A program made the translations under genes and the position numbers. From contig JBDREC010000088.1 of NCBI GenBank assembly GCA_043820105.1, positions 40,133 through 104,132 on the forward strand: a stretch of DNA of 64,000 bases. Direction: 5' to 3'. The notes beneath the pieces are model-generated. The model was not told the DNA's origin. It did no database searches and worked only from the letters and a program-made list of their open reading frames with translations. This DNA is from JBDREC01 sp043820105 [NCBI: Pseudomonadota bacterium] (lineage in GTDB: Bacteria > Bdellovibrionota_F > JAHFAK01). The stretch's first letter is position 1. Each line of letters begins with the position of its first letter. Below, one piece after another: positions 7,528 to 62,375 of this stretch.

Positions 7528-7543
7528 TGCAAGAAAAGTGCCA
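7528..7543 (-). promoter_or_regulatory. Sigma-54 promoter of 6672-7484
   Basis: Reading leftward: TGGCAC-TTTTC-TTGCA, matching the consensus in both elements with correct spacing. It decides the start codon of the downstream gene. Confidence 0.88.
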
Positions 7544-7606
7544 GAACAAATAATTGTCATTTCCTATAATGTCAAGAGCTTATTACAAATTTAGATAAAG
7601 GAACCC

Positions 7607-8015: not shown

Positions 8016-9653
8016 ATGAAAATAATTTTAATTCAGCCTCCAATTCAGGATTTTTATGATACCAAGATAAGACTGCAACCATTAGGTCTTGCATATTTAA
8101 AAGCAAGCATTAATAAATTTCATTCTGAGGTAGAGGTTAAAATTAAGGATTATCACGCTGGATTTAAAAGACAAACCATTTCCTATCCAAAAGAACTTTC
8201 TTATTTAAAGGATTATTACAAGTACCCTGACAAATCGCATTTTTCTAGCTTCTATCAGTACTATCATTTTGGTGCGAGCTTTGAATTTATTGCTACTGAC
8301 ATTGAAAGTGAAAAGCCAGACTTAGTTGCAATATCATCTTCCTTTTCTCCCTATTATAAGGAAGTTTTAAAATGTGCTGAAGTAATAAAATCAAAATTAA
8401 ATGTTCCGATTGTCTTAGGTGGATCCCATGCCTCAAGTATGCCTGAAATGATGCTTGAAAATAAAAACATCGATTTTATTATAATTGGTGAAGGAGAAAG
8501 GCCAATAGTTGAACTAATAAAGGCACTCACAGAAAATAGAGATATCGCTCAGGTTCCTAGTCTTGTTTTTAAACAAGAGGATAAAATAATTTATAATAAG
8601 CTACAAGAAAATTATGATATTAACAAATTAGCTATTCCTGATTTTAATGACCTAAACCCACAAAATTACCTTTATGATGGCAAACCACTTAGCTTTATTA
8701 TCACCTCCAGAGGCTGCCCTTTTAAATGTTCGTTTTGCTCGATTAACAAAGTATTTGGAAAAAATTATAGACGAAGGAATAATGAGTCCATTATAGAGGA
8801 AATGCTTTTAAGATATGAAACTGGCATAAGAGTTTTTGATTTTGAAGATGACAATCTAAGTTTTCACAAAACAGAATTTTCAAAGCTATGCAAATTAATT
8901 ATTAGTACCTTCACAAGAAAAGACATTCAACTTCTAGCAATGAATGGAATTTCTTATCAACTTCTTGATAAAGAAATTTTAGGTTTGATGAAAGAAGCTG
9001 GTTTCACACATTTAAATATATCTTTAGTATCATGTGATCTATCAACACAAGACAAAACAAAAAGATCATTGGACTTAAAAAAATATGAATCTGTAGTTAA
9101 AGAAGCTTTTTTACTTGGGCTTAAAACAGTTTCTTATCAAATTCTTGGTTTGCCAAATGAAAGCCTTGAAACAATGATTGATACTTTAATTTATCAAAGC
9201 CAAAATCCAGTTTTAATAGGTTCATCTATGTACTATCAAACCCCTGGATCACATCTATCAGGGGGAATTGAAAAATCGTCACTATCTGATGTCTATAAAT
9301 CGCGCTTAACTACAATGGCGATTGAAACAGATCTATTTAAAAGAGAGGACATATATACTCTTTTTATTATAACAAGAATAATTAATTTCATTAAGAGTCT
9401 AGAAACTGACCAAAAAGAGATTTCAATTCAAAAGGCATTGAACTTATTAGAAAATAAAGATTTAAGGTCAAAAACTTCAGTAGAAATATTAAACTTACTT
9501 CTATCGGGCAAAGGTTTTTTTGCCTACACAAAAGAAGGTCAAAAAATTCAAAACAAATTTGATAATAATTTGTTTTTAAAAATCTGGATGCAACTTAGTT
9601 ATATAAAAACGCAGAAAGGAATAATAATACTGAAAAATAGTATTATCAGCTAA
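8016..9653 (+). CDS. B12-binding-domain radical SAM protein
   Basis: 545 residues. Residues 1-170 have the cobalamin-binding-like fold typical of this family (MKIILIQPP, LGGSHAS about 134-140, GEGERP about 158-163). Then comes a radical SAM core with the cluster motif CPFKCSFC (Cys234, Cys238, Cys241) and a (beta/alpha) barrel to about residue 430. A strict DxHxxG cobalamin motif is absent (KDYHAGF is the nearest), so true B12 binding is uncertain. Members methylate or rearrange unreactive carbons on peptides, lipids or cofactors; the substrate cannot be read from the sequence. It stands alone and overlaps the convergent 1149-residue gene by 4 bp. Confidence 0.85.
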   Translation: MKIILIQPPIQDFYDTKIRLQPLGLAYLKASINKFHSEVEVKIKDYHAGFKRQTISYPKELSYLKDYYKYPDKSHFSSFYQYYHFGASFEFIATDIESEKPDLVAISSSFSPYYKEVLKCAEVIKSKLNVPIVLGGSHASSMPEMMLENKNIDFIIIGEGERPIVELIKALTENRDIAQVPSLVFKQEDKIIYNKLQENYDINKLAIPDFNDLNPQNYLYDGKPLSFIITSRGCPFKCSFCSINKVFGKNYRRRNNESIIEEMLLRYETGIRVFDFEDDNLSFHKTEFSKLCKLIISTFTRKDIQLLAMNGISYQLLDKEILGLMKEAGFTHLNISLVSCDLSTQDKTKRSLDLKKYESVVKEAFLLGLKTVSYQILGLPNESLETMIDTLIYQSQNPVLIGSSMYYQTPGSHLSGGIEKSSLSDVYKSRLTTMAIETDLFKREDIYTLFIITRIINFIKSLETDQKEISIQKALNLLENKDLRSKTSVEILNLLLSGKGFFAYTKEGQKIQNKFDNNLFLKIWMQLSYIKTQKGIIILKNSIIS

Positions 9654-12600
9654 GCCCTTGGAGGGATATTTGATCTTGTGTCTAAAGCTGCTACCATGGA
9701 AATATTATAACCATAGCGCTGAACTAGAACTTTTCGTTTTTCTGATGTTTCTTTTTGAGCAATATCATGTAATCTATCTTTTGAAATTAACAAAGGAACG
9801 TCTTCATCAAAAGTTTCATTATAATATTCACGGATCATAGCAAAGGCATCAGTATTAAAAATACCTAAAACTTTAGATTGTCTACCAAAGGCTGAAGCAT
9901 CAGGAATAGCAACCGTATAGTCACCATTTTGCCCCCATATATTATTAATAATCATCAATGCAACATTAAAAGTTGTAGCACCAAATTTCCCATCTATTCT
10001 ATAATTTGCGGGCAAGTCAAGGTTTAGAGATTTTGCAATTTGATAAAGTGTAAGTTGAACAGCCATTGCAACAGGTACTGCGGCCCCTCCATTATGAGCG
10101 TCACAAAGAGCAATAAAAAGATCTTCTTTATTTACATTAAAACCATATTTTTGAGCAAGACCATTGTAAACATCTCTATTAGCATCTCTCATTTCAAGCG
10201 CAATTTTTGCAGCGAAAGATGGATCCTGAAGATTCATAAGAGCTTCTTGTCTGGAAAGATTATGGCGGCTTTGAGTAAAATCAACAGACACTTCAAAAGC
10301 ACCTGTTGATCCAGCTTTTAAAGATCTTTCAATGTGTTCATTTTCTTTGGTAGCCCTGTCAGCGATATCAAAAGATTCTCTGGCAAATTGCTGTGCCACC
10401 TGAGGTCCAAAATATTCATTTTCCATGTAAAAGTTTTTAAGCCGTTCAATACCTTCATTAATGCCCTGTTCTAAAACACTCGCTTTTTCTTCCACATAGT
10501 CAGATACAGACTCAAAAGACTCAGCAGCGGTTAAATAGGCTTTTGCTTTTGCATGTGCAATTGAACTATCTGCTTTCATTAATTCTTGAGCTTTTTCCCT
10601 ATACCTTCTTGCCATTTCTAAATTAGCATCACTAACAGTCTTTGATCCTGATTTTATGGTTGGCGAAACAATCCCTTGAGCAACAATAGTTGAGATGCTT
10701 TCTGGACTGTGAATATATTCATTGCCTAAAACAGCTAAATTCCCTGCATAATGAACACCTCTGGCTGCTACATCACCAGCTGTTTCAACGCCGCCAGCAG
10801 CCAGATCTCTAGCTGATGAAAGCATGCCTTCTTGCCCTGATTCACTTCTAACTTTTTTAGCAACTACTAAAGAAGCATCATGAGTAATATCAACAGCTGC
10901 TTCCCTCATCATAACAGTCCCTTCCATTCTTTGCCTTGCATTTTCTCCTTGAGCTGCAAGTTCAAAACCCGTTGCTAAACCTTGTGCATTAGCCCTTGAT
11001 AAAGGATTCGCTTCTGTTTCAGATTTTCCAAGTTGTTCTCTCCCAAAAAGCTGCTCTAAGTATTCTCTATCTTCTTCATCTCCAAAAGTTTGAATTTCAA
11101 TAGCTTCATTTACTTCTGCAGGTAAAGCTCCAGTATGAATATCCTGAATCAAAGGACCATCCATGCTTCTATGTTCTCTGCTGGCTGTAATTTCCTTGTC
11201 TTCATAAACTCTTTCTTGGAGCGCTATTTGCTCATAGGCAGCATTACAAACTTTTTCAATATGTTCTTTTCTTGCCACAAAGGCAACTTCTGATAAGGCC
11301 TGCTCTGATCCCCACTTTTTGATTGATAGATCAATGTTTGGATCAAGCAAGTCCAAAGTAGCAGCTATTGACTTTGCTTGAGCATATGTCCAAAAACTTC
11401 CCATTTTTAGTGGACAAACATCATTAACCCACTGGCTCATTGAATATCCAGATGGAATAACTTGGGCATACCAGCCATCTTCGGACTTATACATTCTTTG
11501 TATTGCAAGCTTCATTAACCTTAATATTCCTTTTTCTTTATAGTTTGGCGTATTTATATCAAACGTATGAACATAGGAAATAAAGGCATCAATATCATTA
11601 ATTTTTGGCAGCATTTGCTTTGGCCCACCGATCATTCTTTCTGGATTTATACCTGCATAAAAACATGCAAGCATTAAATATTTCCATTCTGCTTCTATTT
11701 TTCCTTCTGTCGCATATCTTTCAGGATATTGATTTTTGTAAGCATCCATTGCATTTTGAGCAGCCCCCATCGGAAAAAATCCAGCTATTTGAGGAGGAAT
11801 TATACTTGTAGCTTCTCCTCTTAAAACAGCACTAATTCCTGTTTTCACTTTTTTATGATTTAATGTAAAAATTTCAACTGGAGCGAACAATCTTGAACCA
11901 ATCATTAAGGAAAGGGGTGTTGTTCTTTCAGCTCCAATAATTTCATGAGTAATTATAACATCCGTAAATCTAAATTTCTCACCGCTATTAATTCTTTTGC
12001 TTATCGAGATTTCTTCCCATGTTTCATTCCTGAAAACTTCTGGATTCATTCCTTGAATAATTTGATTATTCATGTTCCAAATATTATTGGAAAAGGACAA
12101 TCCACCAGAAACATCATAAGTTTTAGCGAGTAATTTTTTAAAATTTCCATTTTCGCTTGCTATAAATTCTTTTGTTTGAACACCTCTGTTAATTGAAATA
12201 TGACTTGAAGATGCTGTTATTTTTTTTGTTTCTTGGCTTGCATAAGAAGCAATTATTTTTCCAGCTGCTCCTGTTCCACTAAACAAGTATGATACTGTTC
12301 CATATACGGCTTCATTTGTTTTTGCAAAATTAATAAAATTTTTGTAATCATTTATGAGATTTGAGGCATTTGAAGAAAATATTTTTGTTTTGGTCCAAAC
12401 TGTCTTATTTCTTCTGGCTTCACTTGCCCACTGAGTTTCATATCCTGGAATAAGCAATTCTCTATTGGCGGCCCTTCTATTTAATTGCCAGGCATCTCCA
12501 TGGGGAAAGCTTACATTAAAAAAAGCAGATAATGTACCAATAACATGGGCTGCACATTTAGCTCCTTCTACAAGACCTTCTTCATTTCCATAAATAACAG

Positions 12601-13099
12601 GCATTACATCATCTGTCCTCAAGCCAATTTCAAACATGCCAGGTGAAGGCGAAAGTCCACTTTTTTTACCTGCTGAATATTCAAACTCACCCTCTAATGC
12701 TTCTGTCTCAAACTCAGGAAAAGAAAAGACAACAGCAGTTTCGCCTGTATCATCATCCAATGAACTCTGTTTTAATATCCCAGCGATATGAAGTTTTTGT
12801 AAAACTTCAAGTTTTTGACTTTCGTCAGAACATTTAACTATAACTTCAAAACCTGCTTTTAACCACCTAACTTCTTTATTCTTAATTTGTATGATTTGTT
12901 CTTCAGATTCTATCTGATATTCTGCAACACCAAGGAATCTTGCTAAATTTTTCTTGTAGCCACAGATTTTAGTCAACTCAGGACTGTTTTGAATTATTTC
13001 GAATTCAGGAAGATTAAAAGTTACTTCCAGATCAGGACTTGCATAAAGGGGAACAAATAAAAGAATACTTATTATAATTATTATAAACCTATTAGTCAT
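9650..13099 (-). CDS. Large exported orphan protein (1149 aa)
   Basis: Signal peptide MTNRFIIIIISILLFVPLYA, then about 1130 mostly hydrophilic residues. The first third is mixed alpha/beta with few cysteines. The middle (about 590-900) is strongly helical and Ala/Glu-rich (SIAHAKAKAYLTAAESFESV, VAQQFARESFDIADRA), probably coiled coil. The C-terminal ~200 residues look globular (CDAHNGGAAVPVAMAVQ, FGATTFNVALMIINNIWGQN). I recognise no family. It has its own sigma-54 promoter, divergent from the A1-B1 promoter across a shared 399-bp gap, so it is likely expressed with the lipoprotein cluster and may act with it, for example as an assembly or surface scaffold component. That role is inference from context. 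Confidence 0.8.
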   Translation of the reverse strand: MTNRFIIIIISILLFVPLYASPDLEVTFNLPEFEIIQNSPELTKICGYKKNLARFLGVAEYQIESEEQIIQIKNKEVRWLKAGFEVIVKCSDESQKLEVLQKLHIAGILKQSSLDDDTGETAVVFSFPEFETEALEGEFEYSAGKKSGLSPSPGMFEIGLRTDDVMPVIYGNEEGLVEGAKCAAHVIGTLSAFFNVSFPHGDAWQLNRRAANRELLIPGYETQWASEARRNKTVWTKTKIFSSNASNLINDYKNFINFAKTNEAVYGTVSYLFSGTGAAGKIIASYASQETKKITASSSHISINRGVQTKEFIASENGNFKKLLAKTYDVSGGLSFSNNIWNMNNQIIQGMNPEVFRNETWEEISISKRINSGEKFRFTDVIITHEIIGAERTTPLSLMIGSRLFAPVEIFTLNHKKVKTGISAVLRGEATSIIPPQIAGFFPMGAAQNAMDAYKNQYPERYATEGKIEAEWKYLMLACFYAGINPERMIGGPKQMLPKINDIDAFISYVHTFDINTPNYKEKGILRLMKLAIQRMYKSEDGWYAQVIPSGYSMSQWVNDVCPLKMGSFWTYAQAKSIAATLDLLDPNIDLSIKKWGSEQALSEVAFVARKEHIEKVCNAAYEQIALQERVYEDKEITASREHRSMDGPLIQDIHTGALPAEVNEAIEIQTFGDEEDREYLEQLFGREQLGKSETEANPLSRANAQGLATGFELAAQGENARQRMEGTVMMREAAVDITHDASLVVAKKVRSESGQEGMLSSARDLAAGGVETAGDVAARGVHYAGNLAVLGNEYIHSPESISTIVAQGIVSPTIKSGSKTVSDANLEMARRYREKAQELMKADSSIAHAKAKAYLTAAESFESVSDYVEEKASVLEQGINEGIERLKNFYMENEYFGPQVAQQFARESFDIADRATKENEHIERSLKAGSTGAFEVSVDFTQSRHNLSRQEALMNLQDPSFAAKIALEMRDANRDVYNGLAQKYGFNVNKEDLFIALCDAHNGGAAVPVAMAVQLTLYQIAKSLNLDLPANYRIDGKFGATTFNVALMIINNIWGQNGDYTVAIPDASAFGRQSKVLGIFNTDAFAMIREYYNETFDEDVPLLISKDRLHDIAQKETSEKRKVLVQRYGYNISMVAALDTRSNIPPRA

Positions 13100-13155: not shown

Positions 13156-13171
13156 AGCAATCTTCATGCCA
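13156..13171 (-). promoter_or_regulatory. Sigma-54 promoter of the 1149-aa gene
   Basis: Reading leftward: TGGCAT-GAAGA-TTGCT, with 10 bp between GG and GC. Predicted transcription start is near 13145, giving a leader of about 45 nt before ATG 13099. Confidence 0.82.
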
Positions 13172-13429
13172 GATATTAAAAATGTTATTAGTTCTTTATT
13201 TTCAGGCCATTAAGTCGGGCAAACTACGGTTTTTATGTTAAAATCGCAATTTCCATAGTAATTATTCTGTATTTTTTACATTAATGCCAAAACCGACTTG
13301 TCCCCTTACACATTATCCAAGTTTACACTATTATTCCAAAAGACTCAATCCAAGACACTTTAACATAAAATTCCGACAACCAAAAACATAACCCCCTGTT
13401 TTCACTCAGTTTCCCAGTCACTGGCGAAA

Positions 13430-13445
13430 TGGCACACAATTTGCT
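13430..13445 (+). promoter_or_regulatory. Sigma-54 promoter of unit 1 (A1-B1)
   Basis: TGGCAC-ACAAT-TTGCT, a full consensus match at 10-bp GG/GC spacing, 54 bp before ATG 13499. Confidence 0.9.
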
Positions 13446-13498
13446 TCTATATAAAGGTATAAAAACAAGACAAAAAGTTTAAAAATAGGAGTGAGGAA

Positions 13499-14653
13499 AT
13501 GAAAAAACTACAAATAATCATAAGCTTAGCAATCATATCAAGCTTAATTTACTCTTGTGGACCAAGTTCTGCCAGAAATGCAGCTGAATTCAACAACCCT
13601 TTAGATGATCTTATCGAAAAATGGGGTCAATGCGAAGAAGTATCAGCCACAGCCTCAGATCCATATTGCATTGATTCAGATGGAGATGGTATTCCAGATA
13701 TGGTAGAAATTGAAATGGGCACAGATCCAGATGATGGTGATATGACCAGTGAAGAATTTTGCTATAATGCAATGATGACAGGCTCAGAATATGCTGACCA
13801 ATATTGCCAGGCAATTGGTGTTGGAAGTTTTGCAGACCTTGCTGAAACTTATGCAGCTGATGGATACAATGCAGAAATGCTGTTTCAAATACTAGAAATG
13901 TCAACAGGAGCAATTGAGGCGATCATTGTGGCTTTGATTGAGAGAGGGAAGACAGCGGATGCTCAAGCTGCTACAATGCCAGCAGGATACTGTCAATTAG
14001 ATGGTGAAATTTCTGAGGCTCTTGATGAGTTTTTAGAAGCATTAAGAACTGACACTGGCAGAAGCACTTCAAGTAGTAATAGCGGAAGATCAGAACCAAG
14101 CACTTCAACAACTCAAATTACTTCGCACACTTTCTATGCACTTGACGAAGATAATCATATTGTAAAAACACGAGGTAGTCCTTGGGAATATTTTAAATGG
14201 CTAACACCAGATATGTATGAACAGTCTGATATTATTGACAGCGCCTTAGAAGCTCCTACATTCATTAATATAAACTACATTGGCAATGGCGACTATGAAT
14301 ATGTACTTGGAACTTATGGAGATACAGGATATGCCTATCAATACGGTGAAGTACTTGGCCCTTGTGGTGGAAGTGGTTGTGCTATAATGTTTGTTCCTGA
14401 TTCAACAACACAAAATATAACACTAAACTATCAAGCAATTGGATACACAGGTTGCAAAGAAAGTGGTGATAAAGATTCATTAAAAAAAGATACAACAGGA
14501 GCAGTATACAAATTCGCACTATGCTATGAATCAATTTCAAGTGATGCTGTAGGTGAAAATGGAACCTATACAACAGACCTAAGCGATGATGAAAATTGTG
14601 ATTATTTCTTTAGACTTAATCCAGTTGATTGCAATGATAAAAGTGATGAGTAA
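13499..14653 (+). CDS. A1: TSP3-loop lipoprotein, unit 1
   Basis: 384 residues. The lipoprotein signal ends at IYSC-G (Cys20), followed by SARNAAEFNNPLDDLIEKWG, nearly identical in A2 and A3. A single thrombospondin-type-3-like calcium loop DSDGDGIPD lies at residues 59-67 and continues as EIEMGTDPDDGDM. A cysteine-containing helical region (EEFCYNAM, QYCQAIG) and an amphipathic helix (EMLFQILEMSTGAIEAIIVA) follow, then a Ser/Thr/Asn-rich linker (about 195-215) and a variable C-terminal domain rich in paired cysteines, ending PVDCNDKSDE. It is the first gene of a bicistronic unit present three times in tandem. It is probably anchored in the outer membrane; the role is unknown, with adhesin or pilus-associated protein as possibilities. 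Confidence 0.85.
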   Translation: MKKLQIIISLAIISSLIYSCGPSSARNAAEFNNPLDDLIEKWGQCEEVSATASDPYCIDSDGDGIPDMVEIEMGTDPDDGDMTSEEFCYNAMMTGSEYADQYCQAIGVGSFADLAETYAADGYNAEMLFQILEMSTGAIEAIIVALIERGKTADAQAATMPAGYCQLDGEISEALDEFLEALRTDTGRSTSSSNSGRSEPSTSTTQITSHTFYALDEDNHIVKTRGSPWEYFKWLTPDMYEQSDIIDSALEAPTFININYIGNGDYEYVLGTYGDTGYAYQYGEVLGPCGGSGCAIMFVPDSTTQNITLNYQAIGYTGCKESGDKDSLKKDTTGAVYKFALCYESISSDAVGENGTYTTDLSDDENCDYFFRLNPVDCNDKSDE

Positions 14654-14834
14654 AAAAATAAAAATCATCCTGGCAACTGGTGCTCTGGTGACTGGTGACC
14701 AAGACTAGGATTAAAAGCAAATAAAATTGAAAACTGATTATGAAAACATAAAATTTTCAATAATCAACAATTAATAATCAATTTTCAATGAAAGAAATAA
14801 GTAAGTTAGATAATAAAACGTACAAAGGTGGAAA
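14654..14834. repeat. Repeat insertion between A1 and B1
   Basis: This gap is 181 bp, whereas the equivalent gaps in units 2 and 3 are 41 and 29 bp. The extra sequence has a CTGGTGA-type 7-bp array (14670-14700) and a 16-bp inverted repeat with arms at 14727-14742 and 14774-14789 (one mismatch). B1 translation starts after AAAGGTGG just upstream of ATG 14835. Confidence 0.75.
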
Positions 14835-15860
14835 ATGAAAAAGCTAATAACAACATTATTATTAATATCCTTTATATTGTCATCATGCATGACCTCAGGA
14901 GGAACCTCTGCTAACCAGGTTATTGGTGATGCAGCTGGAAGTGATGAAGAATGGGATTGGGATGAAGATGATCCATTTGGTGGGCTTGAAGATTATGATG
15001 ATACTGATAGTGATGGTGATGGAGTATATGACTGGATTGAAGAACAAATGGGCACAGATCCAAATGATCCAACAGATGTTCCAGATGTAGCAGGTGCACT
15101 GGCCTATGATGCGAGTCTTGATTCTTCAGGAATGTCTAATTTAACAGATTATCTTGGTGGAGCGTTATCAACTTCAATGGCCTCTGTACTAACAGCCTGG
15201 GGACTACCAAAAAATATTAAAACTTGCATAACTCCACGCCCTACAAAAATTAAAGGAAACTTAGTAACAACAGATCAAAAGGCTTTAAAACAATCAAGCT
15301 TTACAATAAACTCTTTGGATATTGATACAGCAACAGAAACACCAACAACAGGAAAATTGAAATTTTCTGGAAACCTTTATTACATGCTAACAAAGGGAAC
15401 TGGTGATAGTAATATACAAGTAGGTCATTATTCTGTACAAGCTGGTATAATTATCATGAAACCAATGGGTTTTACAACTTGTGTTAATACATTCGCAGTA
15501 GATGTGGCTGAAATCCCATGCAAACCTTGTGAGTTTACAGATACAGGCGTTGTTGAAGTATTCGCGGAAGTTTTTGGTGACTGGGCTTGTACTCAAGATC
15601 TGGATAATAAAAAACCTGGTCTTTATGTGGGCTGGGAAGAACCAATTAGCAATGGCTCAATTCAAGGCATTGAATTAACAGGAGTTTCGGCAATTGATGG
15701 AAATTTATATGAATTAACCTATATAAATGATAAAGCTGGAGCAACAGATCAAGAATGTGATGAAATAAGAGATGATTCAACTGAAGTAAGCGCTGAATCA
15801 TTAGTAGAAGATCAGACAAGTATTCTTGAATTAAGAGAGATTTCAACACCGAAAATATAA
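14835..15860 (+). CDS. B1: TSP3-loop lipoprotein, unit 1
   Basis: 341 residues. Lipobox LSSC (Cys18), then an acidic stretch rich in Trp, Asp and Glu, and one calcium-loop motif DSDGDGVYD followed by WIEEQMGTDPNDPTDVPD. Next is a helix pair (SLDSSGMSNLTDYLGG, MASVLTAWGLPKNI), then a beta-rich C-terminal half with conserved FTTCVNTFAVDVAEIPCKPC and VGWEEP segments matching B2 and B3. It is the second gene of unit 1. Its general plan (lipobox, calcium loop, amphipathic helices, cysteine-bearing C-domain) resembles that of A, so A and B may be ancient paralogues. Function is unknown. Confidence 0.83.
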   Translation: MKKLITTLLLISFILSSCMTSGGTSANQVIGDAAGSDEEWDWDEDDPFGGLEDYDDTDSDGDGVYDWIEEQMGTDPNDPTDVPDVAGALAYDASLDSSGMSNLTDYLGGALSTSMASVLTAWGLPKNIKTCITPRPTKIKGNLVTTDQKALKQSSFTINSLDIDTATETPTTGKLKFSGNLYYMLTKGTGDSNIQVGHYSVQAGIIIMKPMGFTTCVNTFAVDVAEIPCKPCEFTDTGVVEVFAEVFGDWACTQDLDNKKPGLYVGWEEPISNGSIQGIELTGVSAIDGNLYELTYINDKAGATDQECDEIRDDSTEVSAESLVEDQTSILELREISTPKI

Positions 15861-15863
15861 GTT

Positions 15864-16006
15864 GAATTTTGAATTTTGAATTTTAAAAACCATACGACAG
15901 TCACTAAAAGTCAATAATATTAATACCATAACAGCCCTAAAACCCTCTTAAAACCAATTTAACAACAGAAACCCACCTCTAATAATCCAAAATTCAAAAT
16001 CCAAAA
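15864..16006. repeat. Inverted heptamer element (GAATTTT...TTCAAAA)
   Basis: Three tandem GAATTTT units (15864-15884) and three units of the complementary series, TCCAAAA, TTCAAAA, TCCAAAA (15986-16006), enclose about 100 bp. The whole element is missing from the otherwise similar gap between units 2 and 3, which suggests an insertion. Confidence 0.72.
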
Positions 16007-16196
16007 CAAACCAAATCCACAAAAATACCAGTAAACCAAATACCAAACACAACTCCCATGCCTAAAATTCAGCAAAAAACCCCTGTTTCCTTAACAAAAT
16101 CGCTGAAGATTATGGATTATAATTAGGATTAGGATCAAGGTTAGAATAAAAAAATCCAAGAAATCTCCATATAAGCTCCCGAAATAACAAGAAACA

Positions 16197-16230
16197 AGCT
16201 TACAGCTGACAGCTTACAGCTTACAACTTA
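16197..16230. repeat. AGCTTAC heptamer array before the unit 2 promoter
   Basis: AGCTTAC, AGCTGAC, AGCTTAC, AGCTTAC and AACTTA in tandem, ending 7 bp before the -24 element. At the matching place unit 3 has a CACTTAC array instead. Confidence 0.8.
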
Positions 16231-16236
16231 TTCTCT

Positions 16237-16252
16237 TGGCACACATCTTGAA
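16237..16252 (+). promoter_or_regulatory. Sigma-54 promoter of unit 2 (A2-B2), weak -12
   Basis: TGGCAC-ACATC-TTGAA: perfect -24 and correct spacing, but -12 is GA instead of GC. Unit 3 has the same change, so units 2 and 3 share an ancestor after unit 1 or are under different strength control. Confidence 0.7.
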
Positions 16253-16320
16253 ATAGAACTCAGTAAGGCGTATATAAAAACTGTATTATTGTATAAAAAC
16301 ACCAAAATGGGAGTTAAGCA

Positions 16321-17454
16321 ATGAAAAATATTAGTTTTTTAGTCGCCTTATCATGGCTCTATCTATTATCAACAATTGGTTGCGGACCAACTGCTGCCAG
16401 AAATGCATCAGAATTTAAAAATCCATTAGATGAATTATTCGACAAATGGGGGCAATGCACAGAAGTTTCCCCAACAGCCACAGATCCATATTGTATTGAT
16501 TCAGATGGAGATGGTATTCCAGATCTAGTGGAACTGGAAATGGGAACTGATCCAGATGATGGTGATATGACCCAGGAAGAATTTTGCTTAAATGCAATGC
16601 AAACCGGATCAGAGTACGCTGAACAGTTCTGTGAAGCCATGGGCCTGGGCAATGGTTTTGGTGATATGCTTGATCAGGCAGCAGCTGGTGATGGATTTAA
16701 TGCAGAACTTCTGATTTCGATTTTGCAATTAACAGGAGATGCTCTGACTCAGATTTTGACAGCTTTTGCTGAAGCGGGAAAGACGAGTAATCCGTATATG
16801 GGATCAGCTCCAACTGGATATAACACAAGAGATAGTGAAAAAACAGATAAAACAAATGAATTACTTGAGGAATTACTATCAACAATGGATGAACAACCAA
16901 GTAATCTTGGACAAGCATCACCTTCAACGATTTCTAGATCACATAATGAATACTCATATTATTATATAGGAAAAGCACCTAGAAGAACTTGGACCAAAAA
17001 TGAAGTTAGAAGCCAGAACGCTTCTCAATGGCAATTTGCTGAACCTACATCTTCTACATCATACATAAATATTGTTAGCACAGAATCAAAATATGAATAT
17101 GTAATCGCATCAAATTATTCTCCAACAGAAGGCCTAAGTTATGATTTTGGGTCTATAACAGACGCTTGTGGAAATATTGGTTGTGGATTAATTTTTACAC
17201 CATACGCCACTTCGCAAAATTATTTTAACGCAATGACAATTCATTCTTATTCAAGTTGTAAAATTGTTGATAACGGTGATAAAACATATGATGATATAAA
17301 GAAAAATACGCCTGGAGCAATTGGTCTATTTTACCTTTGTTATGATCCGATTACAGGCGAAGACACAGGTTATATAGATTCAGATGATAACGAATGTGAG
17401 GTCTATTTGAGAAAAACATTGGTTGATTGTAACACTGAAAGTTCAAGCAGTTAA
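16321..17454 (+). CDS. A2: TSP3-loop lipoprotein, unit 2
   Basis: 377 residues. Lipobox STIGC (Cys21), then AARNASEFKNPLDELFDKWG and the calcium loop DSDGDGIPD followed by VELEMGTDPDDGDMTQEEFC. Up to about residue 170 it is very close to A3 (FNAELLISILQLTGDALTQI). The C-terminal half is much more diverged (ASQWQFAEPTSSTSYINIVS) but keeps the cysteine positions and the VDCN ending. Conserved N-terminal and variable C-terminal halves suggest a common anchor or assembly part and a diversified exposed part. GGGAG lies just before ATG 16321. B2 follows after 41 bp, so the two are probably cotranscribed. Confidence 0.85.
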   Translation: MKNISFLVALSWLYLLSTIGCGPTAARNASEFKNPLDELFDKWGQCTEVSPTATDPYCIDSDGDGIPDLVELEMGTDPDDGDMTQEEFCLNAMQTGSEYAEQFCEAMGLGNGFGDMLDQAAAGDGFNAELLISILQLTGDALTQILTAFAEAGKTSNPYMGSAPTGYNTRDSEKTDKTNELLEELLSTMDEQPSNLGQASPSTISRSHNEYSYYYIGKAPRRTWTKNEVRSQNASQWQFAEPTSSTSYINIVSTESKYEYVIASNYSPTEGLSYDFGSITDACGNIGCGLIFTPYATSQNYFNAMTIHSYSSCKIVDNGDKTYDDIKKNTPGAIGLFYLCYDPITGEDTGYIDSDDNECEVYLRKTLVDCNTESSSS

Positions 17455-17495
17455 TCAATGAATGAACCAATATTATTATTTAGAAAGAGCAATTT

Positions 17496-18458
17496 ATGAA
17501 AAAAATATTTTCAATATACTTATTAATCGCGTTTTTAAGCTACCCATTCACCTCTTGCATGACAGGTGGAACATCCGCTTCCAGAAATCTTTCTGACACT
17601 GGTGGCATAACAGATCCTGGCGCCGGCTGGGATATTGATCCAGGTGATCCTTTTGCTGGTCTTGAGGATTATGACACAACAGACACAGATGGTGATGGGG
17701 TGCCTGACTGGATTGAAGAAGAATATGGCTCAGATCCAAATGATCCAGATTCAATCCCGGATTTAGAAGCAGCCCTTGGTTATGACGAAAGTCTTGATGC
17801 TTCCGGCATGGAAAACCTGGCTAGCACCCTTGGAGGCCTGACTGTCACCATAGCTTCAACCTTGATTTCCTGGGGTTTAACAGCAAATGCGAAAATGTGT
17901 ATCAAGCCATCTGGCAAAGGTAACATAAAAGCATCAGACCTGGAAGCCCTTCAAGGAGCAACACTTTCAATTTCAGGTGGCGCTGGAAGCTTGACCCTAG
18001 CAGGCGGCCTGTACACAATGACAACAGCTGGGGCTCAGGGTGATTATATAGATGCAGGAAATTTTACAATATCCAAAGGTCATCTTATTTTAAAACCAAT
18101 GGGAAAGGAATGTGTTTATACTTATAGTGCTAGTATTCAGGAAGTGCAAAATGAAGGTTCATGCAATCTGTTTTGTATTGGAACCGGAAGTATTCCCTAT
18201 AGTGATTTAGTAGTTGATGGTGTACCAGTCTGCAAAAATGAATGCACAAAACCTAATGACGGAACAGCAATGGCAACAAAGCATAACACACCTCAACTGG
18301 GCTGGGCTGATCCAATTGAATCCTCAAAAATCGATCAATTCAAGTTAGAAGGAATAGACTCTCCAACTAAAACCCCAATAAGCCTAACGTACTCGAACAC
18401 TGGATATAAAAGTACTGGAGTTAGTTATAATGACATCGATGAACCCAGAACTTTCTAA
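17496..18458 (+). CDS. B2: TSP3-loop lipoprotein, unit 2
   Basis: 320 residues. Lipobox FTSC (Cys21), then MTGGTSASRNLSD, an acidic Gly/Asp/Trp stretch and the calcium loop DTDGDGVPD followed by WIEEEYGSDPNDPDSIPDLE. Conserved helices LASTLGGLTVTIASTLISWG and the C-terminal beta-rich half (ILKPMGKECVYTYSASIQEV, QLGWADPI, KLEGIDS) align with B3. The C-terminus is the most diverged part among the three B proteins. It is the second gene of the unit. Function is unknown and likely depends on the partner A2. Confidence 0.83.
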   Translation: MKKIFSIYLLIAFLSYPFTSCMTGGTSASRNLSDTGGITDPGAGWDIDPGDPFAGLEDYDTTDTDGDGVPDWIEEEYGSDPNDPDSIPDLEAALGYDESLDASGMENLASTLGGLTVTIASTLISWGLTANAKMCIKPSGKGNIKASDLEALQGATLSISGGAGSLTLAGGLYTMTTAGAQGDYIDAGNFTISKGHLILKPMGKECVYTYSASIQEVQNEGSCNLFCIGTGSIPYSDLVVDGVPVCKNECTKPNDGTAMATKHNTPQLGWADPIESSKIDQFKLEGIDSPTKTPISLTYSNTGYKSTGVSYNDIDEPRTF

Positions 18459-18613
18459 AAACATGCCTAAATTTCAGCAAAAAATTAAAAAAATGGTGGT
18501 TTTTGGATATACAATCAGAATTAGGATTAGGATTAGGATTAAGTTTAGAATTTGTTTTCAATAATCAAAATCCATTAACCCTCCAATAAGCCCATGAAAT
18601 CACTAAAAAACAA

Positions 18614-18666
18614 ACTTACCACCTAGCACTTACCACTTACCACTTACCACTTACCACTTACCACTT
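18614..18666. repeat. CACTTAC heptamer array before the unit 3 promoter
   Basis: Seven or more ACTTACC units, the first one or two degenerate, end 8 bp before the -24 element. The flanks align with those of the AGCTTAC array of unit 2. Confidence 0.85.
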
Positions 18667-18673
18667 CCCCACT

Positions 18674-18689
18674 TGGCACAGATCTTGAA
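18674..18689 (+). promoter_or_regulatory. Sigma-54 promoter of unit 3 (A3-B3), weak -12
   Basis: TGGCAC-AGATC-TTGAA with 10-bp spacing between GG and GA. The -24 element is perfect and -12 has A in place of C, as in unit 2. Confidence 0.7.
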
Positions 18690-18757
18690 AAATAACCTAA
18701 TTAGAGCGTAAAAAACGTTAAATATTATGAAATAAAAACACTTTGGGGAGTTAAGTA

Positions 18758-19936
18758 ATGAAAAATATTAAACTATTTATTGCCTTAGCATTGCTCATAG
18801 CAATATCAACAATTGCTTGCGGACCAAGCGCAGCCAGAAATGCTTCAGAATTTCAAAATCCACTTGATAACTTATTAGACAAATGGGGTCAATGTGTAGA
18901 AGTATCACCAACAGCCACAGATCCATACTGCATAGATTCAGATGGAGACGGTTTTCCAGATCTAGTAGAACTAGAAATGGGAACAGATCCAAATGATGGA
19001 GATATGACTCAAGAAGAGTTTTGCCTAAATGCAATGCAAACTGGTTCTGAATATGCTGATGCATATTGTGAGGCAATGGGTCTTGGTGGTGGATTTAATG
19101 ATCTTTTAAATCAAGCTGCCGCTGGCAGTGGATTTAATTCAGAACTTTTAATATCAATTCTTCAAATAACAGGTGATGCTTTAACTCAGATTCTAACAGC
19201 TTTTGCTGAAGCAGGAAAGACAAGCAATCCACAAGGGGGCACAATGCCATCTGGTTATAATTATCAAAATGATAAAATAGATAGAGATGAGCTTGCAGAA
19301 CTTCTGAATCAAATGAGAACAAATCCAGATACAAGCTCTTCATCAACAAGCAATAGAGGAAAATCAACACCAACAACAGAGTCAGTAACTCCTGATGAGT
19401 ATACTTTTTATAAATTTGATGACGATGTATTTTCTAACATTTCAACTTTTGCAACAACTTTAGATGCAAACTATGAAGCAGAAACAATGATGCCTTTAGC
19501 TGCAGATAATCCTACTTACCTGAATATCATAAATGTTGAAGGTAGCAAGTATGAATATGTAATAGGAACATATGCTGACTATGGTTACTCATATGAATTT
19601 GGGTATATTAATAATGGTTGTGGCGCTCCTGGTTGTGACCTTATATTAACACCATTTTCAACTCAGCAAAATATTTTTAAAAGTTACACAGCATTATCAT
19701 ACACTGGCTGTAAAGAAGTTAAAAGTCAAAATGGCAAAACCGAATATGATGCATTAAAATCTCAAAGCACTGGTGCAGTTTATAAATTTGCATTATGCTA
19801 CAAATCCATTGCTCAGCAGGCATATGATGGAGAATTATTGGAGCACTGTGATTATTATTTTAGAGCAAACCCCGTTGACTGCAATGATAAAAGTGATGAA
19901 TTAGAAGCAGCTGAAGCCGATGCAACAGATGAATAA
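18758..19936 (+). CDS. A3: TSP3-loop lipoprotein, unit 3
   Basis: 392 residues. Lipobox STIAC (Cys21), then PSAARNASEFQNPLDNLLD and the calcium loop DSDGDGFPD followed by VELEMGTDPNDGDMTQEEFC. It is nearly identical to A2 through LLISILQITGDALTQILTAF, while its C-terminal half is closer to A1 (STGAVYKFALCY, YYFRANPVDCNDKSDE). This mosaic pattern suggests gene conversion between copies. A GGGGAG ribosome site precedes ATG 18758. B3 follows after 29 bp. The function is unknown. Confidence 0.85.
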   Translation: MKNIKLFIALALLIAISTIACGPSAARNASEFQNPLDNLLDKWGQCVEVSPTATDPYCIDSDGDGFPDLVELEMGTDPNDGDMTQEEFCLNAMQTGSEYADAYCEAMGLGGGFNDLLNQAAAGSGFNSELLISILQITGDALTQILTAFAEAGKTSNPQGGTMPSGYNYQNDKIDRDELAELLNQMRTNPDTSSSSTSNRGKSTPTTESVTPDEYTFYKFDDDVFSNISTFATTLDANYEAETMMPLAADNPTYLNIINVEGSKYEYVIGTYADYGYSYEFGYINNGCGAPGCDLILTPFSTQQNIFKSYTALSYTGCKEVKSQNGKTEYDALKSQSTGAVYKFALCYKSIAQQAYDGELLEHCDYYFRANPVDCNDKSDELEAAEADATDE

Positions 19937-19965
19937 ACAAACATTATAAAGGAAAAGAGCAAATT

Positions 19966-20928
19966 ATGAAAAAGATATTTTCAATATATTTAATAATAGC
20001 ATTATTAAGCTACCCACTAAGTTCTTGCATGAGTGGTCAAGCTGCCGGATCAAGAGCTTTATCAGATAGTGGAGCAACAGACACAGGTGATGGCTGGGAA
20101 TTTGATCCGAATGATCCATTTGGCGGGTTAGATGGCATTGATACAACAGACACTGATGGTGATGGAGTTTATGATTGGATTGAAGAAGAATATGGTTCAG
20201 ATCCAAATGATCCAAATTCAATACCAGATCTTGAATCAGCTCTTGGTTATGACGCGAGTCTTGATTCAAGTGGTTTAGACAGTCTTGCTGACACCTTAGG
20301 TGGCCTAACAATTTCACTTGCTACAACATTAATTTCTTGGGGATTAACCGCTAATGCCGTTATGTGCGTAACCCCAGGCCCAGGAAAAGGAAATATTGAA
20401 ACAACAGATCAAGAAGCATTAATTGGAGCATCATTTGCAATGGTTTCGTCAGAAGCTGCTGGAGCAATTAAATTTGATGAACAAACTAGATACTATCTAA
20501 CAACAGTTATTCCTGATTTTGATGATCCCTTTACGGAAACTGGATATTTTAAAATCATAAAAGGTAAATTAATTCTAAAACCAGTCGGAAAAGCCTGCGT
20601 TTATACTTATAAGGCTAGCATTCAAGAGATAACATGTGAACCTTGCGTTACAACAGACTTTCCTATAAGCGATGCTTTGCTTACCATGTTTGGAGATACG
20701 AAATGCACTTCTAATACAAAAAATCAAGTAGCTGGCACTTATATGGGCTGGCAAGATCCAATTGAAACATCAACCTTACTAGAAATGAAAATAGAAGGAA
20801 TTGACTCTCAATCAAAAGCTGAAATTATTGGCCTATATACAAATGCAAGAGCTGGTCAAGGAAATGATATGGAGTGTGACGAAGTTTCAAAATCTGAGAC
20901 AATGACCATTAGAACTATGGCTGAATAA
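19966..20928 (+). CDS. B3: TSP3-loop lipoprotein, unit 3
   Basis: 320 residues. The first 20 residues are almost identical to those of B2; lipobox LSSC (Cys21). The calcium loop DTDGDGVYD (residues 62-70) is followed by WIEEEYGSDPNDPNSIPDLE. Helices LADTLGGLTISLATTLISWG and a C-terminal half with CVYTYKASIQEITCEPC and MGWQDPI are shared with B1 and B2. It ends the three-unit array. A 26-bp-arm inverted repeat and the Tad-like genes follow. Role unknown. Confidence 0.83.
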   Translation: MKKIFSIYLIIALLSYPLSSCMSGQAAGSRALSDSGATDTGDGWEFDPNDPFGGLDGIDTTDTDGDGVYDWIEEEYGSDPNDPNSIPDLESALGYDASLDSSGLDSLADTLGGLTISLATTLISWGLTANAVMCVTPGPGKGNIETTDQEALIGASFAMVSSEAAGAIKFDEQTRYYLTTVIPDFDDPFTETGYFKIIKGKLILKPVGKACVYTYKASIQEITCEPCVTTDFPISDALLTMFGDTKCTSNTKNQVAGTYMGWQDPIETSTLLEMKIEGIDSQSKAEIIGLYTNARAGQGNDMECDEVSKSETMTIRTMAE

Positions 20929-21008
20929 AAATAAAATAATTAAGATTTCTTGAAATTGCTTTCCTAATTTCCTATAATAATATAGAGTTTTTAAATAAAA
21001 GACTGGTG

Positions 21009-21072
21009 GTCATTCTGAACTTGTTTCAGAATCCACTGCGTCCAAGGGATCCTGAAACAAGTTCAGGATGAC
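21009..21072. repeat. Inverted pair of CTGAAACAAGTTCAG elements
   Basis: Arms at 21009-21034 and 21047-21072 are 26 bp each, complementary at 24 positions, with a 12-bp loop. Each arm is itself a copy of the dispersed palindrome found at 2565 and 33887. The stem could act as a terminator after B3. Confidence 0.85.
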
Positions 21073-21095
21073 AAGCCAATATATATTGGAATAAA

Positions 21096-23606: not shown

Positions 23607-23660
23607 TAAGTGGTAAGTCGTAAGTGGTAAGTGGTAAGTGGTAAGTGGTAAGTCGTAAGT
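23607..23660. repeat. TAAGTGG heptamer array
   Basis: Seven TAAGTGG/TAAGTCG units plus TAAGT directly after the TadG-like stop codon. It is the inverted partner of the array at 23792-23865, about 130 bp away. Confidence 0.92.
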
Positions 23661-23753: not shown

Positions 23754-24497
23754 ATGAATAAAACCAAAAACATCCAAAAACTAGCAAAGCCCTTACGACT
23801 TACGACTTACCACTTACGACTTACCACTTACCACTTACCACTTACCACTTACCACTTACCACTTAAACGCCGTGCCCAAACCATCATCGAATTCGCCTTT
23901 GTCGTTTTCTTTATTGCTCTGTTTATCCTTGCTGCTCTTTATTTCTCAAGAGTCCTGAAATTCGCTACATCTAAAAACCTTAGAATTAGAACTGACATTA
24001 TGAAAGAATATACAACCTGTGAATCCAGATTTTATGATTATTATCTTTTGCAGTCCATGGAAGGAATAGATAATCCACCCAGTGAAAACCTGGGCTTTAG
24101 AACAAATACTCATATTGAAAATCAAGAGCCTTTAAGATGGTTCACAACAGATGGTTCTGGATCAAGAGATATTGCTTATATTTACGCGGGAAAAAGCCTT
24201 GAGGAGGGAGGATATGCTCCAAACATATTTGCAGATCCAGAAGCAAAGTTTTTTGTTGGCTATGGCTCATTTTTGTTAATGTTAAATGAAGATGAACTCC
24301 CTGATGCTTCTTTGCCAATGAATGATTACGAATCTTTTCAGGAAGAATATGCAGGTGGAACCTCAGATTCATGGACAACTGCTTCGCGAATAGAAAAGTT
24401 GAAAGATAATCTTGATTATGAACAAAGGCGGCAATCTGATTACAATAGGGTTTTAGCGGATCCTAATCGGAATGTTTGGATAAATAATCAGAAATAA
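23754..24497 (+). CDS. TadE-like pseudopilin with repeat-encoded leader
   Basis: 247 residues. AGAGGAATAA before ATG 23754 supports this start. Residues about 14-37 are an imperfect heptapeptide repeat (LTTYHLR, LTTYHLP, LTTYHLP) encoded by ten 7-bp units. It is followed at once by KRRAQTIIEFAFVVFFIALF, a TadE-type cleavage site and membrane helix. No alternative start exists between repeat and helix, so the repeat must be translated as the cytoplasmic leader. A prepilin-type peptidase would remove it from the mature protein, which explains why it is tolerated. The exported domain is unique. It is the last gene of the Tad-like group. Confidence 0.8.
   Translation: MNKTKNIQKLAKPLRLTTYHLRLTTYHLPLTTYHLPLKRRAQTIIEFAFVVFFIALFILAALYFSRVLKFATSKNLRIRTDIMKEYTTCESRFYDYYLLQSMEGIDNPPSENLGFRTNTHIENQEPLRWFTTDGSGSRDIAYIYAGKSLEEGGYAPNIFADPEAKFFVGYGSFLLMLNEDELPDASLPMNDYESFQEEYAGGTSDSWTTASRIEKLKDNLDYEQRRQSDYNRVLADPNRNVWINNQK
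23792..23865. repeat. CTTACCA heptamer array inside a TadE-like gene
   Basis: Ten CTTACCA/CTTACGA units plus CTTA, in frame with the gene at 23754. Together with 23607-23660 it forms a long inverted repeat. Confidence 0.93.
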
Positions 24498-31194: not shown

Positions 31195-31384
31195 ATTGGC
31201 CTCCTGTTCTCCCAATTAATTATTAATTATTAGTTATTAATTATTTTAAAAAAGCACCCAAAACTAAAATAAACTATTAATGTATTTAGCAACATACATG
31301 CCAAAACCATTCCCAAATAATATTAATAGCTTAGTCTCACTATTTTTTTTCATTTTTGGAATAAATTTCTCAAATTGAGAAAAC

Positions 31385-33835: not shown

Positions 33836-33886
33836 TGTTAATTCCTTAGTAATATTTTAAATTTGAAATTATTTTTTGAATAAAAT

Positions 33887-34027
33887 GGATCCTGAAACAA
33901 GTCCAGGATGACACCCCATTGCCAGCAACCAGCAACCCCTACCACTTACCACTTACGACTTACGACTTATCACTTACCACTTACGACTTACCACTTACCA
34001 CTTACGACTTACCACTTACCACTTACC
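33887..34027. repeat. Composite repeat gap between valS and the GGDEF gene
   Basis: In order: one CTGAAACAAG palindrome (33887-33912), two CCAGCAA heptamers (33921-33937), then about twelve CTTACCA/CTTACGA heptamers (33942-34027) that run up to the stop codon of the FHA-GGDEF gene. Confidence 0.9.
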
Positions 34028-44877: not shown

Positions 44878-45014
44878 CCCACTCCCTCTTTTCCTCCAAT
44901 TTCCAGAATCAAGAGCCAAAACGATACTACAATCCAAGAATGCCAGAACACAATAATCCCAAATTACCCTTCAAACTTAGCAACTTATAGGCAAACAACT
45001 TAAACCCGAAAAAC

Positions 45015-45030
45015 TGGCAAGGAATTTGCA
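45015..45030 (+). promoter_or_regulatory. Sigma-54 promoter of 45071-45595
   Basis: TGGCAA-GGAAT-TTGCA, GG and GC 10 bp apart. The predicted start near 45041 gives a leader of about 30 nt before ATG 45071. Confidence 0.8.
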
Positions 45031-51562: not shown

Positions 51563-51725
51563 TTATTAATTATTGATTATTAATTATTTTCACCCCACCC
51601 ATCCATATGCCGTATTTTCACCAAAACACTAATTAAATGATACCTTAATGCTCAAAACAAAAACTGTAAGCCAGATCACACTCCCATAAGGCCTTGATTT
51701 GTCTTATGTTTTCAATTGTCCCTTT

Positions 51726-51741
51726 TGGCACGATTCTTCCA
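51726..51741 (+). promoter_or_regulatory. Weak sigma-54-like promoter
   Basis: TGGCAC-GATTC-TTCCA: perfect -24 and correct spacing, but -12 is CC instead of GC. It lies 49 bp before ATG 51790. Listed as a weak candidate because of its position. Confidence 0.35.
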
Positions 51742-62216: not shown

Positions 62217-62375
62217 ATCCACCTCTCCCCTTGTATATATTTCTTCGAAAAAAGTTATACCCTATTAAAACAAAAAGCCTTTTTATTATATCAAAGACTT
62301 ATTGGAAAATATGTGCATTTGATCACAATACTCATTATTATAGTATAATTTTGAAAGAAAATTAAGAAATTTTTT

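What the first reader, a model, noticed from the sequence alone, without database searches (positions are those of the whole stretch)
13430..20928. Three tandem two-gene units encoding paired calcium-loop lipoproteins
A1-B1, A2-B2 and A3-B3 have identical order, own sigma-54 promoter each, a conserved N-terminal half (lipobox, RN motif, DxDGDGxPD loop, amphipathic helices) and a variable C-terminal half. Strict A-B pairing through duplication suggests the two proteins work as a complex, with the C-terminal halves diversified for ligands, phage or host avoidance. I do not recognise the family. With the divergent 1149-aa protein and downstream Tad-like genes this is the best candidate for an undescribed surface system.
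Basis: partly seen in the sequence, partly recalled or inferred. Interest (0 to 1): 0.88.

Follow-up and report, generated by a model that had tools for sequence, protein, structure and literature searches.

The report
Three pairs of calcium-loop surface lipoproteins
An uncultured bacterium carries three old tandem copies of a two-gene unit for lipid-anchored proteins with a calcium-binding loop, whose far ends may be small ligand-binding barrels and which seem to be switched on together with its pili and other surface proteins.

Summary
Six intact ORFs form three A-B units; all six have a lipobox and one DxDGDG calcium loop, and each unit has an upstream sigma-54-like site (units 2 and 3 depart at the -12 element). 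The loop is a bacterial TSP3 repeat (one of six passes the Pfam cut-off). The lipid-proximal module is far more constrained than the C-terminal half, and synonymous divergence is high, so the duplications look old.

Three points change the reading. (1) A and B share their N-terminal module. (2) Separate, low-confidence models of A and B both lead to calycin-type barrels (lipocalin, NlpE, TP0435). (3) The promoters fit a wider pattern: 8 of 10 strong sigma-54-like sites in 64 kb lie just upstream of ORFs (shuffles: mean 0.07, at most 1), among them a type IV pilin, the 1149-aa protein and A1-A3.

Most likely these are outer-membrane lipoproteins with a conserved calcium-stiffened base and a variable ligand-binding barrel. 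No relative beyond the TSP3 repeat was found, but the organism's own lineage could not be reached, so A-B pairing elsewhere and complex formation remain untested. New variant of a known kind.

The parts
13156..13172 (-). sigma-54-like site CTGGCATGAAGATTGCT, 57 bp before the 1149-aa gene
9650..13099 (-). 1149-aa protein with an N-terminal signal peptide (by eye), divergently transcribed; candidate co-regulated partner (inferred)
   Evidence: no Pfam or NCBIfam match above cut-off
13429..13445 (+). sigma-54-like site of unit 1 (ATGGCACACAATTTGCT)
13499..14653 (+). A1 lipoprotein, 384 aa
14835..15860 (+). B1 lipoprotein, 341 aa
16236..16252 (+). sigma-54-like site of unit 2 (TTGGCACACATCTTGAA; the -12 element departs from consensus)
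16321..17454 (+). A2 lipoprotein, 377 aa
17496..18458 (+). B2 lipoprotein, 320 aa
18673..18689 (+). sigma-54-like site of unit 3 (TTGGCACAGATCTTGAA; the -12 element departs from consensus)
18758..19936 (+). A3 lipoprotein, 392 aa; the only one of the six whose TSP3 repeat passes the Pfam cut-off (25.1 against 25)
19966..20928 (+). B3 lipoprotein, 320 aa
21005..21073 (+). REP-like palindrome between B3 and the tadE-like gene (-45.2 kcal/mol, z -8.8); may separate the transcripts
   Evidence: sigma-70-like promoter 20950-20978 (11 of 12 consensus bases) and no terminator-like site in this gap

Best explanation
A and B are outer-membrane lipoproteins built on one plan: a lipid anchor, a short linker, one Ca2+-binding TSP3 repeat that stiffens the stalk, a helical segment (longer in A), and a C-terminal calycin-type (lipocalin/NlpE/TP0435-like) beta-barrel, probably disulphide-bonded, that binds a ligand or another surface molecule. 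Each A-B pair is made from one sigma-54-dependent transcript, together with the type IV pilin and other exported proteins. The lipid-proximal module is nearly fixed because every copy docks on the same partner or location. The barrels have diverged by ordinary old duplication, giving three pairs of different specificity.

Shown by sequence: gene order, lipobox, TSP3-like loop, shared A/B N-terminal module, sigma-54-like sites, and the contrast in constraint. Suggested only: the barrel fold. Inferred: Ca2+ binding, outer-membrane location, disulphides, one transcript per pair, the common docking partner, ligand binding, and the A-B pair acting together.
For: Lipobox in 6 of 6. DxDGDG loop in 6 of 6. 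TSP3_bac is the best Pfam match for 5 of 6 full-length proteins, 1 of 6 over the cut-off. Mature N-terminal parts of A and B score above all of 300 shuffles in 9 of 9 A-B comparisons; hhalign probability 95.8% over A 1-82 / B 1-84, signal peptide included. Foldseek, by row titles (fold assignment of titles recalled): 47 of the 50 rows shown for A (639 matches in all) are lipocalins or a related fatty-acid-binding-type barrel; 30 of the 50 shown for B (1119 in all) are lipocalins, NlpE, TP0435 or other small lipocalin-like or lipoprotein entries. VIA-align for B: TP0435 Z 9.9 (84 aligned, rmsd 2.6), Bacteroides lipocalin-like proteins, one deposited as a putative monosaccharide-binding protein, Z 8.6-8.8 (rmsd 3.6-6.7), NlpE Z 8.4 (rmsd 2.2). 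For A: designed, avidin, lipocalin and FABP barrels over residues 213-372, best Z 7.4. Cys beyond the lipid Cys: 10 in A2 and A3, 11 in A1, 6 in each B. Acidic mature proteins, D+E 43-67 against K+R 16-20. sigma-54-like sites: 8 of 10 upstream of ORFs against a shuffle mean of 0.07 and maximum of 1 in 300. sigma-54 control of the bacterial exterior is an established theme (PMC3162934, passages read).
Against: Both models have low confidence (mean pLDDT 39.9 and 35.9; three-sequence alignments). No Foldseek match reached E 0.001; the lipocalin rows for A fit loosely (target TM-score at most 0.36, rmsd 8-15), and 20 of the 50 rows shown for B are other folds, mostly DNA sliding clamps at low score. 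The tool warns that Z under 8 is common. The isolated C-terminal parts match no Pfam family at E up to 10. The calycin Gly-X-Trp/Arg signature is missing at the barrel start in all six; one late match occurs in B1. A and B C-terminal parts are not related by hhalign (probability 0.2); only 1 of 9 pairs (A1-B1, 5 of 5000 shuffles as good) looks related. The segments after the repeat show no A-B relation in any of 9 pairs. Location, Ca2+ binding and ligand binding were not testable.
Confidence: 0.45

Rival explanations
1. A and B form an obligate heteromeric complex, for example a two-chain receptor, with matched pairs that do not cross-assemble.
For: A-B order is kept in 3 of 3 units, with no sigma-54-like site (up to 2 mismatches) between A and B in any of them. 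The rank order of divergence is the same in A and B: copies 2-3 closest, then 1-3, then 1-2.
Against: Duplication of the whole unit explains both facts without any contact between A and B; the upstream DNA of units 2 and 3 was duplicated as well. With three copies the trees are trivial. No other genome with A or B was found.
Confidence: 0.3
2. They are accessory lipoproteins of the Tad-like / type IV pilus apparatus, such as surface-located pilus docking or retention factors.
For: TadE/TadG-like genes follow at 21096, 22185 and 23754. The sigma-54-like set includes the type IV pilin at 1807. B1 has a weak match to the Amuc_1099 pilus-like system family around the repeat (13.8 bits against a cut-off of 50). 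No intrinsic terminator was found between B3 and the tadE-like gene.
Against: A hairpin of -45 kcal/mol and a sigma-70-like promoter lie between B3 and the tadE-like gene. Only one of the three Tad-like proteins passes a Pfam cut-off (22.5 against 22.3). No tadA, tadB or tadC gene was recognised among the 37 of 49 window ORFs of 150 aa or more that were scanned.
Confidence: 0.15
3. They are cell-cell contact lipoproteins comparable to the myxobacterial proteins CglD and MtsD (gliding motility, cohesion).
For: Weak NCBIfam matches are to CglD (A2, E 0.00031) and MtsD (A2 0.011, B2 0.039).
Against: These matches cover only 24-40 residues around the TSP3 repeat, at 12-19 bits against cut-offs of 400 and 800; they reflect the repeat, not the protein.
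Confidence: 0.1
4. A variable antigen or phage-receptor array that changes by recombination between the copies.
For: C-terminal parts vary much more than N-terminal parts, and A1-A3 is closer than A2-A3 in the C-terminal part although the reverse holds in the N-terminal part. dS is lower in the N module of A (0.47-0.82) than in its C-terminal part (1.16-1.67), which leaves room for past exchange there.
Against: Synonymous divergence is high in every segment outside the signal peptide (pS 0.35-0.92), so there is no sign of recent exchange. No dedicated search for switching repeats was made.
Confidence: 0.07

Closest known systems
TP0435 (Tpp17) and TP0751 of Treponema pallidum: lipoproteins with a lipocalin-type barrel
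   Same: Lipid anchor and C-terminal calycin barrel; TP0435 is the best structural match to the B model (Z 9.9) and TP0751 is listed too (5jk2, Z 7.0). Their location, surface or periplasm, is judged differently in print (PMC4861935 and PMC7521688, passages read).
   Different: In TP0751 the N-terminal extension is described as disordered; here it is a TSP3 module that is the most conserved part. Here the genes are paired, tandem and sigma-54-linked. No sequence match to these chains was found in the PDB searches with A and B.
NlpE of Escherichia coli
   Same: Outer-membrane lipoprotein with a small barrel (Z 8.4 to the B model).
   Different: No Pfam match, NlpE included, for the C-terminal parts at E up to 10; the TSP3 module is extra.
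Bacterial TSP3-repeat envelope proteins (TraB, CglD, MtsD of Myxococcus)
   Same: A TSP3 repeat as a predicted Ca2+-binding link between envelope domains (TraB: PMC6372800 and PMC12045341, passages read).
   Different: Matches to CglD and MtsD are confined to the repeat; the other domains of TraB as described (outer-membrane barrel, OmpA) are not seen here.
sigma-54 control of the bacterial exterior
   Same: Lipoproteins and other surface components behind -24/-12 sites (PMC3162934, passages read).
   Different: Here the targets are A-B units, a type IV pilin and an unknown 1149-aa protein in an unplaced lineage.

Membership tests
Bacterial TSP3 repeat (PF18884) | Pfam gathering score of 25 bits | tested here: inconclusive
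   A3 25.1 passes; B1 23.4, B2 22.9, B3 19.9 and A1 16.4 fall below; A2 not listed (1 of 6 passes)
Bacterial TSP3 repeat (PF18884) | Acidic calcium loop DxDGDGxxD followed by G(T/S)DPxD | tested here: met
   6 of 6 (the consensus is recalled)
Bacterial lipoprotein | Type II signal peptide with lipobox | tested here: met
   6 of 6 by pattern and hydrophobicity; no dedicated predictor was available
Lipocalin / calycin superfamily | Closed 8- or 10-stranded antiparallel beta-barrel | tested here: inconclusive
   low-confidence models; matches of this fold prevail, best Z 9.9 (B) and 7.4 (A), no Foldseek E below 0.001
Lipocalin / calycin superfamily | Gly-X-Trp/Arg signature at the start of the barrel | tested here: not met
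   absent in 5 of 6 C-terminal parts; in B1 present only late (residue 248)
Lipocalin / calycin superfamily | Sequence match to a lipocalin or NlpE family | tested here: not met
   0 of 6 C-terminal parts match any Pfam family at E up to 10
Tad pilus system | A or B match a Tad family | tested here: not met
   no Tad match for any of the six
Tad pilus system | A-B genes share a transcript with the tad-like genes | tested here: inconclusive
   hairpin and sigma-70-like promoter in between, but no intrinsic terminator; no transcript data
sigma-54 regulon | -24/-12 site upstream | tested here: met
   the -12 element of units 2 and 3 departs from consensus
sigma-54 regulon | Dependence on RpoN and an enhancer-binding protein | not testable with these tools
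   no genome of the organism is held
Constant A-B pair | A and B co-occur in other genomes | tested here: inconclusive
   no homologue beyond the TSP3 repeat, and no genome of the organism's own lineage to serve as positive control

The most novel reading that the evidence does not exclude
A new class of modular surface receptor: paired lipoproteins that share one invariant calcium-stiffened base, docking on a common co-regulated partner (possibly the 1149-aa protein), and carry exchangeable lipocalin-type barrels. A sigma-54 programme expresses them together with type IV pili, so that an uncultured bacterium displays a matched set of ligand-binding heads when it becomes surface-active.
Probability: 0.2. 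Interest if true: 0.62.

Novelty: new variant of a known kind. Interest (0 to 1): 0.4.

Why it matters
If right, it joins two known parts, the TSP3 calcium spacer and the lipocalin-type barrel, in one lipid-anchored protein. No paper in the library searched held 'thrombospondin type 3', 'lipocalin' and 'outer membrane' together. A fixed base with variable heads, present as three old pairs on one contig, is a natural comparison for asking what the base docks on and what the heads bind. The sigma-54-like set gives a short list of genes in an unplaced lineage that probably act together at the cell surface.

Tried and rejected
Homologues: genome contigs with the A alignment gave none. Viral contigs with A, B and the 1149-aa protein gave none. 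Plasmids with A3, B3 and the 1149-aa protein, and phages with A3, gave none. Whole-genome searches: A in phyla of 30, 20, 3 and 42 genomes gave 1 match in 95, to the TSP3 repeat only; B in 30, 20 and 42 genomes gave 1 match in 92, to the repeat only; the 1149-aa protein in 20 and 30 genomes gave 0. None of these phyla is shown to be the organism's own, so the absence carries little weight. CTP synthase in 12 genomes (best 61%) and DXP synthase in 34 (best full-length match 53%, a fragment 57%) did not place it either. The Pfam Tad family in 4 of these genomes gave none. VIA-align compares only chains that Foldseek ranks highest; families not listed there are not excluded.

Full-length common ancestry of A and B: supported only for the N-terminal module; the C-terminal test passed in 1 of 9 pairs and the segment after the repeat in 0 of 9, so it is not claimed. 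Recent gene conversion as the cause of N-terminal conservation: not needed, since synonymous divergence is high there too; older exchange in the N module of A is not excluded. A peptidoglycan-binding motif in the 1149-aa protein was suspected by eye; no Pfam match supports it. PDB sequence searches with A, B and the 1149-aa protein gave a best E of 0.35. Inverted repeats in the three upstream regions gave no shared activator site that I could recognise. Rfam and tRNA scans of the window gave nothing. Literature searches that returned no paper: TSP3 with Tad pili and lipoprotein; TSP3 with lipocalin and outer membrane. Listings were seen as listings; from the hits five papers were opened and only passages read.
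Full report
What is there. The six reading frames are at the stated places and in the stated order. The other two A copies are 57% and 52%, and the other two B copies 56% and 42%, identical to the third copy. Each protein starts with a signal peptide and lipobox and carries one DxDGDG loop. The 'RN' motif is in all three A and in B2 only. Pfam recognises the loop as a bacterial TSP3 repeat: A3 passes the cut-off (25.1 against 25), A1 and the three B fall below it, and A2 is not listed. No other Pfam or NCBIfam family reaches its cut-off for any of the six; PHROGs, tried with A3 and B3 only, gave a best E of 0.08. The isolated C-terminal parts match no Pfam family at E up to 10.

A and B are related to each other at the N-terminus. 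Profile comparison gives 95.8% probability over A 1-82 and B 1-84, signal peptide included. The mature N-terminal parts score above all of 300 shuffles in each of the 9 A-B pairs; part of this is the shared repeat. Beyond the repeat a common origin is not shown: the segment after it is at shuffle level in 9 of 9 pairs, hhalign of the C-terminal parts gives probability 0.2, and only A1-B1 stands out, with 5 of 5000 shuffles as good, one of nine pairs tried.

How the copies evolved. In A the lipid-proximal module is 78-89% identical between copies and the C-terminal part 35-47%. In B the figures are 53-72% and 31-43%. Synonymous differences are many in every segment outside the signal peptide (pS 0.35-0.92), while dN in A is 0.07-0.14 in the N module and 0.52-0.71 in the C-terminal part. 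The duplications therefore look old, and the N module is held by selection. Recent copying between genes is not needed, but dS in the N module of A (0.47-0.82) is lower than in its C-terminal part (1.16-1.67), so some past exchange there is possible. Upstream DNA of units 2 and 3 is alignable, including the promoter-like site; unit 1 shares only short stretches with them. A most-conserved base under a variable head suggests a shared docking partner and different targets. That is inference.

Promoters. Sites with at most one mismatch to YTGGCAC-N5-TTGCW and an intact GG number 10 in the window; shuffles give 1.1 on average, at most 4. Eight of the ten lie between 10 bp inside and 120 bp upstream of the start of a same-strand ORF of at least 150 aa, against a mean of 0.07 and a maximum of 1 in 300 shuffles (the consensus is recalled). 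The genes are a type IV pilin (1807), a frame of 286 aa whose likely start at 7484 gives an exported protein, the 1149-aa protein, A1, A2, A3, a 256-aa and a 174-aa protein, both exported by eye. A ninth site, at 51725, precedes a shorter exported protein with its ATG at 51790; the tenth, at 37444, lies inside a gene. The sites of units 2 and 3 lack the usual C of the -12 element and are duplicates of each other, so they count for less. Control of envelope genes by sigma-54 is an established theme (PMC3162934, passages read).

The Tad-like neighbours. The three downstream proteins are TadE/TadG-like, one of them just over a Pfam cut-off (22.5 against 22.3). Between B3 and the first lies a palindrome folding at -45.2 kcal/mol (z -8.8), with partial copies elsewhere in the window, and the best of 75 sigma-70-like matches in this 15-kb region (11 of 12 bases; shuffles give 56 matches on average). 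No intrinsic terminator was found in the gap. I lean to a separate transcription unit; it is not settled.

Fold. Models from three-sequence alignments have low confidence: mean pLDDT 39.9 for A3 and 35.9 for B3. The C-terminal parts, modelled separately, nevertheless lead to the same place. For A, 47 of the 50 Foldseek rows shown (of 639) are lipocalins or a related barrel, best E 0.0045, but with loose fits (target TM-score at most 0.36). For B, 30 of the 50 shown (of 1119) are lipocalins, NlpE, TP0435 and similar entries, best E 0.0025; the other 20 are mostly sliding clamps of low score. After realignment B matches TP0435 at Z 9.9 (84 residues, 2.6 A), Bacteroides lipocalin-like proteins at 8.6-8.8, and NlpE at 8.4; 15 of 998 chains reach Z 8. 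A matches designed, avidin-type and lipocalin-type barrels at up to 7.4, a level the tool calls common. Against it: no Foldseek E below 0.001, no Gly-X-Trp/Arg signature at the barrel start, and no family match. The barrel is the best current reading, not a result, and membership in the lipocalin family is not claimed.

Mechanism. The proteins are lipid-anchored, acidic and rich in cysteine (10 in A2 and A3, 11 in A1, 6 in each B besides the lipid Cys), which fits an oxidising compartment and a calcium-bound stalk. In A, Cys58 and Cys89 (A3 numbering) flank the TSP3 repeat; disulphide-dependent calcium binding by bacterial TSP3 repeats is the subject of a 2017 paper that I saw only in a reference list. 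The closest architectural parallels are TP0751 and TP0435 of Treponema, lipoproteins with a lipocalin-type barrel, whose surface or periplasmic location is judged differently in print (PMC4861935, PMC7521688, passages read), and TraB, where TSP3 repeats link envelope domains (PMC6372800, PMC12045341, passages read).

Limits. The organism could not be placed and no genome of it is held. Searches in the reachable phyla found the repeat only (1 of 95 genomes for A, 1 of 92 for B). The finding is real and orderly, made of recognisable parts in an unusual combination; interest is moderate.

Noticed in passing
1734-1750, 7528-7544, 13156-13172, 31288-31304, 45014-45030, 51725-51741: Sigma-54-like sites before a type IV pilin and several exported proteins of unknown function; together with A1-A3 a compact set of envelope genes.
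   Followed up: yes
21005-21073; partial copies at 2564-2589 and 33884-33913: REP-like palindromes; the first folds into a very stable hairpin.
   Followed up: partly
18629-18663, 23820-23861, 23625-23652 (minus strand): Short tandem heptamer repeats (CTTACCA type) in or near intergenic DNA, on both strands.
   Followed up: no
9650-13099: 1149-aa exported protein without any family match above cut-off, with its own sigma-54-like site.
   Followed up: partly
31385-33835: Valyl-tRNA synthetase of the PRK13208 type (archaeal character recalled) in an apparent bacterium; the best of the relatives found are 49-51% identical and include archaea.
   Followed up: partly
G008, contig 29, 18985-20610: The CTP synthase frame of an unnamed small genome contains one in-frame TAG; assembly error or code change not decided.
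   Followed up: no
60621-62222: 533-aa acidic protein whose first 24-43 residues, mostly signal peptide, weakly resemble those of B2 and B3 (E 0.004-0.11); unknown function.
   Followed up: no
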